This document shows positions 4,034 through 27,222 of a DNA stretch of 37,425 bases, piece by piece. The position numbers and the translations under genes were made by a program. Position 1 is the first letter of the stretch, and every line of letters starts with the position of its first letter. The stretch covers positions 9,426 through 46,850 of the forward strand of contig NZGT01000134.1 in NCBI GenBank assembly GCA_002691025.1, read 5' to 3'. This DNA comes from Spirochaeta sp. Its GTDB lineage: Bacteria; Myxococcota_A; UBA9160; UBA4427. The notes under the pieces are model-generated. The model made no database searches and was not told the DNA's origin. It saw only the letters and a program-made list of their open reading frames with translations.

Positions 4034-4074
4034 GAAAACAGATCGAGCCAGCCGGAATGCCCGGCTGGCTCGAT
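4034..4074 (-). terminator. 14-bp perfect hairpin ending the thiolase operon
   Basis: Bases 4042-4055 (ATCGAGCCAGCCGG) are perfectly complementary to 4061-4074, with a five-base loop. Read on the minus strand the stem is followed by CTGTTTTC (4041-4034). It lies 46 bases beyond the thiolase stop codon, so it is the expected intrinsic terminator of the DUF35-thiolase transcript. The T-tract is short, so termination may be partial. Confidence 0.75.
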
Positions 4075-4119
4075 GGGTGTTCTTTTCCTGGGCCCCAAAG
4101 CGCCCCGGTCCCCGTGGCC

Positions 4120-24176: not shown

Positions 24177-24495
24177 CTCCGGCCAGTCCTGAAAATTCCC
24201 GAGGGAACGCCATTGCAGGATGGCTGGGGCTCTGTAACACTCCGCCGCGTTCATGGAGTTCGCGATCAAGGCGGGCCTCTTCACCTGAGCCCGCAGACGG
24301 CCAGGTGATCCGGTGGTCTAGACTCGATGTGATCCGCGTTCTTTGAAACATGGAGCGAATTTCGGTGGGACCGGTGTGTGGGTCCGACCGGCAAAGACAA
24401 TGAATGATGGAAGTTCCTGCCCGGTTGCTTTCATGGGCGAGCCATCACCAACCCCAGCATAAGCCCCCTCGAAGGGGATCTTGAGGATAGAGAAT
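24177..24495. other. rpsO leader region
   Basis: These 319 bases between truB and rpsO hold no gene I can support. Two RNA hairpins stand out. Bases 24363-24372 pair with 24381-24390 (CGGT and GGACC arms, one G-G mismatch, eight-base loop). CCCC at 24465-24468 pairs with GGGG at 24474-24477, just before the ribosome site of rpsO. Ribosomal protein S15 represses its own mRNA in several bacteria through leader structures, so these are candidates for that role. Confidence 0.5.
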
Positions 24496-24762
24496 TTGAG
24501 TTCCGAGCAAGCCAAGCAGGTGACGATTGAAGAGCATAGGCACCACGAGTCCGACACGGGCTCAACGGAAGTCCAGGTGGCTCTCTTGACCGACCGTCTC
24601 AATCAGCTCTCCTCCCATTTTGAAAAGCACAAGAAAGACCATCATTCGCGTCGCGGACTGCTCAGGATTGTGAGTCAGCGAAGGCGTCTGCTGGACTATC
24701 TCAAGCGAAAGGATTTCGACCGCTACCGCAAGCTCATTGAGAGCCTCGGACTGCGGCGTTAA
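24496..24762 (+). CDS. rpsO: Small ribosomal subunit protein uS15
   Basis: This 88-residue 30S protein binds 16S rRNA and nucleates platform assembly. Signatures: [55 protein letters not shown], and [13 protein letters not shown] at the C-terminus. The TTG at 24496 gives the standard family length of 88 and sits about 10 bases after GAGG; a TTG at 24481 would add five residues. It precedes pnp, the classical order rpsO-pnp. Confidence 0.95.
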
Positions 24763-24962
24763 ACAGGTTTGATGCGGGTGCGGCAAAGGGCCCATGCGCA
24801 AAGAACCATTTGAGGTTTTCGTTGGACCGGGGGGAAAGACGAAGCAAGCCTCAACCCATCCGGGCGATACCGAAATGTCGGTTTCGCGATGAGGTGCGGG
24901 AGTCGGTCATATACCAAGCCAGTGATGCTTTGTGTATGAGTGATCCTGCATTTCAAAGCGAC

Positions 24963-25026
24963 CTCCTTTCCGTTTCGATCCGGACCAATTCCGCCTCACG
25001 CAGCGTCGTGGGAAAGCGGAAAGGAG
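24963..25026 (+). promoter_or_regulatory. Hairpin masking the pnp ribosome-binding site
   Basis: Bases 24963-24972 (CTCCTTTCCG) are perfectly complementary to 25017-25026 (CGGAAAGGAG). The helix extends three more pairs inward (24973-24975 with 25014-25016, one G-U). The 3' arm contains AAGGAG, the Shine-Dalgarno sequence of pnp. The loop carries a small hairpin (CACG/CGTG). In E. coli the pnp leader forms a long stem cut by RNase III, after which PNPase represses its own synthesis; this stem occupies a comparable position, but the mechanism here is inferred. Confidence 0.65.
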
Positions 25027-25035
25027 AACATAGAT

Positions 25036-27222
25036 ATGCCCTATTGGTTTGAACCGACGACCACATCCATCGAGATCGGTGGTCGTCCCATGACCCTGGA
25101 AACGGGTCGAATGGCCAAGCAAGCCGCCGGATCCGTGGTGGTCAGCTATGGCGGAACTTCTGTCCTGGTGACAGCGGTTCACTCGAAGCCCCGCCCCGGG
25201 ATTGATTTCTTTCCTCTGACCGTCGACTTCGTCGAGAAGTTTGCGGCGGCGGGCAAGATCCCCGGCGGTTTCTTCAAGCGCGAGGGACGTCTCTCGGATC
25301 GAGAGGTCCTGGTTTCGCGGTTCATCGATCGTTCCATTCGCCCTCTCTTTGCGGACGGCTACAACGATGACACGCAGATCACCGCGACGGTGCTTTCTTC
25401 GGATCCCGATTCGTCTGCGGATATGTGCGCGTTTGTCGGCGCTTCAGCCGCGTTGTCGATTTCGGATCTGCCCTTCCTCGGCCCGATCGGGGCTGTGCGG
25501 ATCTGCCGGGCGGATGGCGAGTTCATCATCAATCCGAACCCCGAACAACGAGAGGGCGCCGAGCTTGAGTTGATTGTGGCCGGTACCCGCGGCTCCATCG
25601 TCATGGTCGAAGGTGGAGGCGACCAGATTGCCGAAGCCGAAATGCTGGTGGCTCTCAAGCATGCGCATGAGAAGATCCTGGAGATCATCGACGTCATCGA
25701 AGCCTTCCAGAAGCAGGTCGGCAAGGAGAAACTGGTTCCGGCGGAACCCGAAGACCTTTCCGAACTGGAGTCTGAAATCCGGGCCAAGGCTGGCGATCAA
25801 CTGTCAGAAGCCTTCCAGATTCGCGCCAAGCACGAGCGCAGCGCGGCCGTGAAGGAGATCGAGAAGGGCGTGATCAACGAGTACGTGGACGCCTACTCGA
25901 ACGAGAAGGTTGAAATCGACACGCTGGCCGGCTGGGAAGGTCGCCGGACGGGGCTCGCTTCGTTGCGTGGCAACGTTTCCCACCTCCTGCACGACATCGG
26001 CGCTGACCTGATGCGCGATCGTGTGCTGGCGACGGGAGAGCGTATCGACGGTCGAAAGAACAACGATATCCGTCAGATCGCTTGTGAGGTCCGTGCTGTG
26101 ACGCGTCCTCATGGTGTGGCGCTCTTTACGCGTGGTGAAACGCAGGCCATGGTCAACTGCACGTTGGGTAGTGGTTCCGACGAGCAGACCATCGACGGGA
26201 TGGTGGGTCGTTTCAAGAAGGCCTTCATGCTTCATTACAATTTCCCTCCCTTTTCGGTGGGAGAGGCCCGGCCGCTGCGCGGTCCCGGCCGACGGGAAGT
26301 GGGACATGGCACGCTGGCGGAAAGAGCCATCACACCGGTCCTGCCCGAGCATGAGGACTTTCCCTACACGATTCGTCTGGTGAGTGAGACGCTGGAATCA
26401 AACGGGTCTTCTTCGATGGCTGCGGTCTGTGGATCGACGCTGGCTCTGCTCGACTCCGGTGTGCCGATCAAGGCTCCGGTGGCGGGTATTGCCATGGGTC
26501 TGATTACAGACGGCAAGAGGACCGTGATCCTCTCGGATATTCTCGGTGACGAGGATCATCTCGGCGACATGGACTTCAAGGTCGCAGGGACCGAAGAGGG
26601 CATCACAGCACTCCAGATGGATATCAAGGTCAAGCAGATTGACTGGGATATCATGGAGAATGCGCTGGCCCAGGCACGAGAAGGTCGACTGCACATCCTG
26701 AACTGCATGCGAGAAGAGACGGCCTCTGATCTCGGCAACCTGGAGCCGCGAGAGGAGCTGCATGAGTTTGCTCCGAGGCTTGAGGTCATGTTCGTCAAGC
26801 CGGATCGGATTCGGGATATCATTGGCCCTGGAGGCAAGGTGATCCGAGCGATCCAGGAGACGACCGGCGCCAAGATTGATGTCGAGGATTCCGGACGGGT
26901 TTCGATTTTCGGTCCGGATGGCGCATCCGTCGAACAGGCGTTGTCGATGGTGGGCGAACTCACCCAGGAAGCTGAAATCGGCAAGATCTACCTGGCCAAG
27001 GTCAAGCGGGTCGCTGATTTCGGTGCTTTCGCGGAGATCTTCCCCGGGACTGACGGTCTGATTCACATCAGCCATCTCGCGGACGGTCGAGTCGATAACG
27101 TGACCGATGTGGTTTCCGAGGGTGATGAAGTACTGGCCAAGTGCATCGATATCGACCCGGCCGGTCGGATCCGCCTTTCGCGAAAGGAAGCGCTGGCTGA
27201 GACGGCCACGGAAGGCGAATAA
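25036..27222 (+). CDS. pnp: Polyribonucleotide nucleotidyltransferase (PNPase)
   Basis: This 728-residue phosphate-dependent 3'-5' exoribonuclease acts in RNA decay. Two RNase PH domains are visible (first: ETGRMAKQAAGSVVVSYGGTSVLV, RSIRPLFADGY; second: ATGERIDGRKNNDIRQIACEV, LFTRGETQAMVNCTLG). The catalytic segment ILGDEDHLGDMDFKVAGT lies at about residue 500. A KH domain (IRDIIGPGGKVIRAIQETTGAKIDVED) and an S1 domain (YLAKVKRVADFGAFAEIFPGTDGLIHIS) follow, and the protein ends soon after S1 without a long tail. The ATG at 25036 follows AAGGAG by 9 bases; the longer frame from 24940 runs through the leader hairpin and is non-homologous. Confidence 0.97.
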   Translation: MPYWFEPTTTSIEIGGRPMTLETGRMAKQAAGSVVVSYGGTSVLVTAVHSKPRPGIDFFPLTVDFVEKFAAAGKIPGGFFKREGRLSDREVLVSRFIDRSIRPLFADGYNDDTQITATVLSSDPDSSADMCAFVGASAALSISDLPFLGPIGAVRICRADGEFIINPNPEQREGAELELIVAGTRGSIVMVEGGGDQIAEAEMLVALKHAHEKILEIIDVIEAFQKQVGKEKLVPAEPEDLSELESEIRAKAGDQLSEAFQIRAKHERSAAVKEIEKGVINEYVDAYSNEKVEIDTLAGWEGRRTGLASLRGNVSHLLHDIGADLMRDRVLATGERIDGRKNNDIRQIACEVRAVTRPHGVALFTRGETQAMVNCTLGSGSDEQTIDGMVGRFKKAFMLHYNFPPFSVGEARPLRGPGRREVGHGTLAERAITPVLPEHEDFPYTIRLVSETLESNGSSSMAAVCGSTLALLDSGVPIKAPVAGIAMGLITDGKRTVILSDILGDEDHLGDMDFKVAGTEEGITALQMDIKVKQIDWDIMENALAQAREGRLHILNCMREETASDLGNLEPREELHEFAPRLEVMFVKPDRIRDIIGPGGKVIRAIQETTGAKIDVEDSGRVSIFGPDGASVEQALSMVGELTQEAEIGKIYLAKVKRVADFGAFAEIFPGTDGLIHISHLADGRVDNVTDVVSEGDEVLAKCIDIDPAGRIRLSRKEALAETATEGE

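What the first reader, a model, noticed from the sequence alone, without database searches (positions are those of the whole stretch)
24963..25026. Long stem sequesters the pnp ribosome-binding site
A 10-bp perfect inverted repeat (extended to 13 pairs with one G-U) places the pnp Shine-Dalgarno sequence in the 3' arm. In E. coli, PNPase autoregulates through a leader stem cut by RNase III. Finding a long stem with a masked SD at the same gene in a distant lineage suggests the same logic evolved or was conserved, possibly with a different mechanism (direct occlusion).
Basis: partly seen in the sequence, partly recalled or inferred. Interest (0 to 1): 0.55.

Follow-up and report, generated by a model that had tools for sequence, protein, structure and literature searches.

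The report
Conserved pnp leader masking ribosome site
The messenger RNA for a bacterial RNA-degrading enzyme begins with a long hairpin followed by a folded stem that hides the ribosome-binding site, a layout kept across a group of uncultured bacteria and probably used by the enzyme to limit its own production.

Summary
The stem is real: 13 pairs with one G-U (24963-24975 with 25014-25026), and the pnp Shine-Dalgarno (SD) AGGAG (25022-25026) lies in its 3' arm. A 10-bp inverted repeat alone is not rare in this window. What lifts it above chance is conservation: in 54 relatives the stretch 3' of the upstream hairpin pairs on average better with its own SD flank than with those of others (0 of 20,000 permutations as good). 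Its model matches 68 of 90 genomes of the class at 70 places, all 71-195 nt before a pnp match, and no genome of another class in a phylum sample of 282. This is a two-module rpsO-pnp leader: a long hairpin of RNase III-substrate type, then an SD-masking fold. E. coli has a hairpin of like size there but no comparably masked SD. RNase III control of pnp is known, and Rfam's Actino-pnp does not match. Function is inferred; nothing was tested at the bench. Verdict: a new, lineage-specific variant of a known kind; SD masking is common, not universal.

The parts
24496..24762 (+). rpsO, ribosomal protein S15 (TTG start at 24496 assumed; the ORF list gives an upstream TTG at 24481), first gene of the pair
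   Evidence: NCBIfam S15_bact TIGR00952, 123.6 bits over cut-off 63.65; ORF
24766..24854 (+). two hairpins directly after the rpsO stop (24766-24807 and 24810-24854); possibly the protected 3' end of rpsO mRNA; role inferred and weakly supported
   Evidence: fold; the second alone (24808-24868) has z -1.48, 18 of 200 shuffles as stable
24890..24955 (+). hairpin A: 27 pairs with one bulge and two 1x1 mismatches, conserved and covarying; proposed RNase III substrate
   Evidence: -34.5 kcal/mol, z -6.53, 27 pairs; covariation; single site in own genome; 70 of 70 places in the class lie upstream of pnp
24963..24975 (+). P1 5' arm, anti-SD strand (CTCCTTTCCGTTT), with 7 nt between hairpin A and it
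   Evidence: cognate-pairing tests
24976..25013 (+). two inner hairpins of the SD-masking fold, making a three-way junction with P1 in the window
   Evidence: MFE and centroid agree; not tested as a conserved feature
25014..25026 (+). P1 3' arm, holding the pnp SD AGGAG (25022-25026)
25036..27222 (+). pnp, polynucleotide phosphorylase, 728 aa, ATG start
   Evidence: NCBIfam TIGR03591, 957 bits over cut-off 525.05; start matched in relatives

Best explanation
The 273-nt rpsO-pnp spacer encodes a two-module regulatory leader of pnp. Module 1 is hairpin A, a 27-pair near-perfect duplex of the size RNase III cuts; cutting would separate rpsO from pnp and leave the pnp mRNA starting with a short duplex whose upstream strand PNPase can degrade from its 3' end. 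Net effect: PNPase and RNase III limit PNPase synthesis, as in E. coli, with an added SD-occlusion step. Shown here: both modules are predicted to fold, are conserved and show correlated changes; every class match of A lies at pnp; RNase III and an RNase E/G homologue are encoded. Inferred: RNase III cutting, PNPase stripping, feedback, and any dependence of module 2 on module 1.
For: Hairpin A: on alignment A1 (30 leaders, MAFFT, not structure-fitted) 88.4% of 850 cells pair, against 82.3% with partners shuffled among sequences and 30-45% with partners slid; 14 pairs have changes on both sides (shuffled 10.1 +/- 1.5, 4 of 500 as high); 60 doubly changed cells against 20.1 +/- 3.6, 0 of 500. 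Model R1: one place in the own genome up to E=10, its reverse strand being the same place (150 of 3497 first-look candidates scored); 68 of 90 class genomes; all 70 places 71-195 nt upstream of a pnp match, best strand = pnp strand in 69. P1: cognate duplex mean -16.79 versus permuted -14.73 +/- 0.37, 0 of 20,000 as low, 54 leaders; with the anchor set by sequence alone, 86 flanking pairs (of 160) versus 67.6 +/- 5.2, 4 of 5000 (40 leaders); perfect helices of 6 or more holding all of GGAG in 33 of 51 leaders versus 11.5 +/- 2.9 in shuffled windows. RNase III (217.7 bits) and RNase E/G (482.8 bits) are encoded. E. coli K-12 has a 26-pair hairpin at the same place. PMC7866481 (one passage) states that RNase III cuts a stem-loop in the pnp leader and PNPase degrades the new 3' end in the duplex; PMC8708148 (passages) says RNase III repression of PNPase also occurs in B. 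burgdorferi, S. coelicolor, S. pyogenes and C. jejuni.
Against: No transcript ends, cleavage or expression data. SD masking is uneven: with hairpin A in context, 25 of 56 leaders have SD unpaired probability below 0.1; with A left out only 15 of 56 are at or below 5% of their own shuffles. A leader's own SD flank is the best partner in only 4 of 54 and among the best 10% in 12 of 54: P1 pairing is a tendency of the set, not a strict rule. Five of 51 leaders have no perfect helix over GGAG. Hairpin A gave no match above 12.1 bits in eight class leaders searched with filters off, so it is not indispensable. One weak R1 match lies away from pnp: L099 3538-3599, 22.1 bits, a palindromic repeat between a TetR-like and a transporter-like ORF (labels are my reading of the ORFs, not searched). 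The 27 pairs are broken by a bulge and two mismatches, whose effect on RNase III is unknown.
Confidence: 0.6

Rival explanations
1. Hairpin A is only a processing and stability element: RNase III cuts it to uncouple rpsO from pnp and to protect rpsO 3' ends. The P1 stem simply sets a low fixed translation rate. There is no feedback by PNPase.
For: Topology alone cannot show feedback. Two hairpins follow the rpsO stop in the window.
Against: Every class match of A lies 71-195 nt before pnp; RNase III-based control of pnp recurs in other bacteria.
Confidence: 0.25
2. A switch: when hairpin A is cut and its 5' strand removed, its 3' arm (GCAUUCC) re-pairs with the start codon region (GGAAUGCC-like) and closes the initiation site.
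For: GCAT in the 3' arm and ATGC at the start co-occur in 37 of 54 leaders.
Against: No covariation: cognate -4.53 versus permuted -4.41 +/- 0.10, 2514 of 20,000 permutations as good. Each side is already constrained, by hairpin A and by the first codons of pnp.
Confidence: 0.07
3. Chance structure in GC-rich DNA, or a coding N-terminal extension of pnp read through the leader (an in-frame GTG exists at 24940).
For: 10-bp inverted repeats are not rare here; ORF 24940-27222 is open.
Against: Correlated changes in both modules. The same-genus relative G001 has an open frame of only 732 aa and its start lines up with the ATG, so the leader is not coding there.
Confidence: 0.03

Closest known systems
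Escherichia coli rpsO-pnp leader (RNase III + PNPase autoregulation)
   Same: Same gene pair and order; one long hairpin of 26 pairs with 67 nt between it and the start codon, versus 27 pairs and 80 nt here; RNase III and RNase E/G encoded here.
   Different: No match of model R1 to the E. coli region up to E=10. E. coli's SD is not held in a comparable stem (mean unpaired 0.39 against about 0.002). No experimental cleavage or feedback data for this lineage.
Actino-pnp RNA, Rfam RF01688
   Same: A conserved structured RNA scored as cis-regulatory and named for pnp in Actinomycetales (row of Table 1 in PMC2864571, passage seen).
   Different: Does not match the window. 0 of 89 class genomes reach its gathering score, and its listed sub-threshold matches lie on contigs other than pnp's or, in G034, about 25 kb from it. 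A different taxon.
Streptomyces coelicolor rpsO-pnp intergenic hairpin
   Same: A hairpin lies in the rpsO-pnp spacer (PMC5872136, passages), and RNase III represses PNPase there (PMC8708148, passage).
   Different: S. coelicolor also has a terminator and two promoters in that spacer; no sigma-70-type promoter-like or terminator-like site was found in 24200-25200 here. Its sequence was not compared here.

Membership tests
RNase III/PNPase-autoregulated pnp leader (E. coli type) | pnp directly downstream of rpsO | tested here: met
   rpsO found upstream of pnp in 151 of 152 sequences (E. coli, other lineages and near-duplicates included)
RNase III/PNPase-autoregulated pnp leader (E. coli type) | long hairpin in the pnp leader of a length RNase III can cut | tested here: met
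   27 pairs; covariation
RNase III/PNPase-autoregulated pnp leader (E. coli type) | RNase III present in the genome | tested here: met
   TIGR02191, 217.7 bits, over cut-off 166.25
RNase III/PNPase-autoregulated pnp leader (E. coli type) | cleavage of the hairpin by RNase III | not testable with these tools
   needs RNA ends from wild type and an rnc mutant
RNase III/PNPase-autoregulated pnp leader (E. coli type) | PNPase represses its own synthesis through the processed leader | not testable with these tools
   needs reporter and pnp mutant
RNase III/PNPase-autoregulated pnp leader (E. coli type) | sequence and structure homology of the hairpin to E. coli's | tested here: not met
   no match of R1 up to E=10 in L159, default filters
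Actino-pnp (Rfam RF01688) | match to the covariance model at or above 47.7 bits | tested here: not met
   no match in window; 0 of 89 class genomes over cut-off

The most novel reading that the evidence does not exclude
A PNPase-sensing leader that arose independently in this Myxococcota class and whose output is direct occlusion of the ribosome-binding site: the state of hairpin A (intact, cut, or stripped by PNPase) changes how tightly the neighbouring SD-masking fold holds, so the enzyme sets its own translation rather than only its mRNA's lifetime.
Probability: 0.2. Interest if true: 0.65.

Novelty: new variant of a known kind. Interest (0 to 1): 0.45.

Why it matters
If right, control of PNPase through a long duplex in the rpsO-pnp spacer has been reached, or kept, in another deep lineage, with an SD-masking module that E. 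coli lacks. Together with E. coli, Streptomyces and Actino-pnp this gives a comparative set for asking why this one exonuclease gene so often carries a double-stranded leader, and whether the output is decay, occlusion or both. The covariance model also gives a pnp-associated RNA marker for a poorly known lineage whose named members are metagenome-assembled genomes.

Tried and rejected
Switch by re-pairing of hairpin A's 3' arm with the start codon: tested, no covariation. Membership in a described Rfam family: none at gathering score in the window; two meaningless snoRNA matches with E 3.8 and 4.6 in 24700-25100. Terminator or promoter in the spacer: none found. Coding extension: rejected on relatives. 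A first SD-accessibility survey cut the context at -120, through hairpin A in many leaders (73 of 78 leaders had an SD; median unpaired 0.20 against 0.31 in 148 control starts; below 0.05 in 22 of 73 against 21 of 148); it was repeated with A in context.

Rows dropped: the script looked for a short motif and gave 66 candidates among 125 distinct leaders (7 loci had no usable pnp start); 10 candidates were wrong or unclear hairpins (L015, L077, L115, L118, L126, L128, L131, L132, L134, L136) and were left out. Of the ten, L015, L131, L132 and L134 were later matched by R1 in the expected stretch. L144 (a distant family) and L158 (second pnp copy of the L014 genome) were also left out. A1 used 30 of the 48 hairpins of at most 80 nt (counted); its members had been required to fold as a hairpin, which favours the paired percentage more than the changes on both sides.

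Genomes without a hit although a pnp match was pasted into (12): G014 and G079 were found with filters off (L022 29.2 bits, L148 28.7 bits; L148 also); G038, G044, G049, G053, G033, G050, G055 and G034 gave nothing above 12.1 bits, though the 3' arm motif is visible in G034's leader L128; G067's pnp match begins at a contig edge; G081 was not followed up.

Full report
WHERE IT LIES. The window holds rpsO (24496-24762) and pnp (25036-27222) with a 273-nt spacer, then dut. Nearest named relatives of the PNPase are Myxococcota/'Deltaproteobacteria' metagenome-assembled genomes, first of them isolate MED660 at 92% identity; its contig has the same length as that of G001, listed as same genus. One family member's contig (G022) matches the record UBA4427 in length (L051; L114); that this places the lineage in GTDB class UBA9160 is recalled, not from a call.

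THE OBSERVATION. The stem is present as described and is the minimum-free-energy and centroid structure of its 64 nt (z -3.41). The SD lies in the 3' arm and is almost never unpaired in the ensemble. The inverted repeat by itself is not unusual for the window (8 hits in 4 clusters against 4.7 +/- 2.9 in shuffles). Among 148 crude SD-bearing starts of the genome, pnp itself counted, its SD is the 5th least accessible.

Directly upstream, 24890-24955 folds into a 27-pair hairpin A with one bulge and two single mismatches (-34.5 kcal/mol, z -6.53). Aligned over 30 leaders, 88.4% of cells pair, against 82.3% when partners are shuffled among sequences and 30-45% when the 3' partner is slid by 1-3 columns; 14 of 29 pairs carry changes on both sides (shuffled 10.1 +/- 1.5), and 60 cells are doubly changed against 20.1 +/- 3.6. 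A folding program with no structure given recovers 22 pairs of the same stem. The model built from it finds one place in the own genome and 70 places in 68 of 90 genomes of the class, every one 71-195 nt upstream of a pnp match, 69 with best score on the pnp strand. In a phylum-wide sample it matches 45 of 282 genomes, all listed as same class or nearer. These genome searches score only part of the first-look candidates (150, 57 and 18 per genome), so weak matches elsewhere could be missed. In f12, the one family listed outside the order, 6 of 11 genomes match, weakly (25.7-40 bits). No match was found in the E. coli rpsO-pnp region L159. One weak match (L099, 22.1 bits) is a palindromic repeat away from pnp.

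THE SD-MASKING MODULE IN RELATIVES. Just 3' of hairpin A most leaders carry an anti-SD word: CTCC occurs within 32 nt of A in 42 of 54 against 21.4 +/- 3.3 in mononucleotide shuffles. The test that does not depend on SD conservation pairs each leader's 32-nt segment with its own or another leader's SD flank: own -16.79 kcal/mol, others by permutation -14.73 +/- 0.37, 0 of 20,000 permutations as good; the own flank is the single best in 4 of 54 and in the best 10% in 12 of 54. With the register fixed by the CTCC word alone, the four pairs outside it pair 86 times of 160 against 67.6 +/- 5.2 (4 of 5000 permutations; 40 leaders); singly, the second, third and fifth outer positions and the fourth inner one exceed the permutations clearly, the others not. 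Perfect helices of at least 6 pairs holding the whole GGAG occur in 33 of 51 leaders against 11.5 +/- 2.9. Examples, written as RNA: L026 AUUGCGUCUCC/GGAGAUGCAAU, L111 UCGAUCUCC/GGAGAUCGA, L018 CGGAUUUCUCCU/AGGAGAAAUUCG. So P1 appears selected for pairing, with its flanks changing together while GGAG stays.

RESULTS AGAINST. SD accessibility over 56 leaders with A in context has median 0.199, and 25 of 56 are below 0.1; with A left out the median is 0.198 against 0.265 for the median of their shuffles (Wilcoxon p 2e-6), but only 15 of 56 are at or below 5% of their own shuffles, and six (L016, L031, L129, L138, L139, L142) have 0.42-0.61. Five of 78 leaders lack a recognisable SD at the usual distance (L020, L021, L023, L114, L143). 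Eight class leaders gave no hairpin A match above 12.1 bits even with filters off: the four of family f10 (L115, L120, L125, L141) plus L118, L126, L128 and L136. Masking is therefore common, not universal, and hairpin A can be lost.

MECHANISM. Shown: two modules, their conservation and correlated changes, the association of A with pnp, and genes for RNase III and RNase E/G. Inferred from E. coli: RNase III cuts A; PNPase degrades the strand left 5' of the cut from its new 3' end; the pnp mRNA is then destabilised (PMC7866481 and PMC9032294, passages only). PMC8708148 (passages) lists RNase III repression of PNPase in four further bacteria. PMC7509114 (passages) adds that ribosomal protein S1 can disrupt this control in E. 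coli. The original E. coli papers (Jarrige 2001; Carzaniga 2009) are not held and are known here only through reference lists and recall. New relative to E. coli is the SD-masking fold: E. coli's SD has mean unpaired probability 0.39 in its leader against about 0.002 here. I tested whether A's 3' arm could re-pair with the start codon as a switch; no covariation supports it (2514 of 20,000 permutations as good).

KNOWN OR NEW. RNase III control of pnp is known; a structured pnp leader is in Rfam for Actinomycetales (Actino-pnp, RF01688; table row in PMC2864571), and it does not match here. No description of a pnp leader in Myxococcota turned up in the listings of the literature searches, which cover only open-licence PMC papers. 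Long stems before pnp also appear in some other lineages folded here (E. coli 25, L150 25, L152 30, L155 26 pairs by a tolerant count), which fits a recurrent solution. I call it a new variant of a known kind. The two modules have not been modelled together as one RNA family.

Noticed in passing
24766-24854: Two further hairpins follow the rpsO stop directly, and relatives L003, L004, L006 and L009 also fold hairpins there, so the spacer is a row of four hairpins; the first two may protect the 3' end of rpsO mRNA.
   Followed up: partly
L012, L013, L015, L016, L020, L021, L023, L051, last 85 nt before pnp: One genus-level group (g10) carries a different recurrent hairpin near pnp with a loop like CUCGAGAAGGAAGAGGGGAG; four of these leaders (L020, L021, L023, L051) have no clear SD at the usual distance. 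Some loops hold AAGGAUG-like words that recall CsrA sites (recalled, untested).
   Followed up: partly
4042-4075: A 14-bp stem with a tiny loop (atcgagccagccgg/ccggctggctcgat) followed a few bases later by ttctttt: looks like an intrinsic terminator.
   Followed up: no
L007 and L157 (G025); L014 and L158 (G002): Two genomes carry two pnp copies, each with its own hairpin A; this may be strain mixture in the assembly.
   Followed up: no
24940: An in-frame GTG makes pnp look 32 codons longer and the open frame runs through the SD-masking stem; the same-genus relative does not share this, so a gene caller may misplace the start here.
   Followed up: yes
L099 3538-3599: A palindromic repeat (tcattgcgagcgcagcgaagcaatc...) between two ORFs gives the only R1 match above 20 bits that one search lists away from pnp; probably an unrelated mobile palindrome.
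   Followed up: partly
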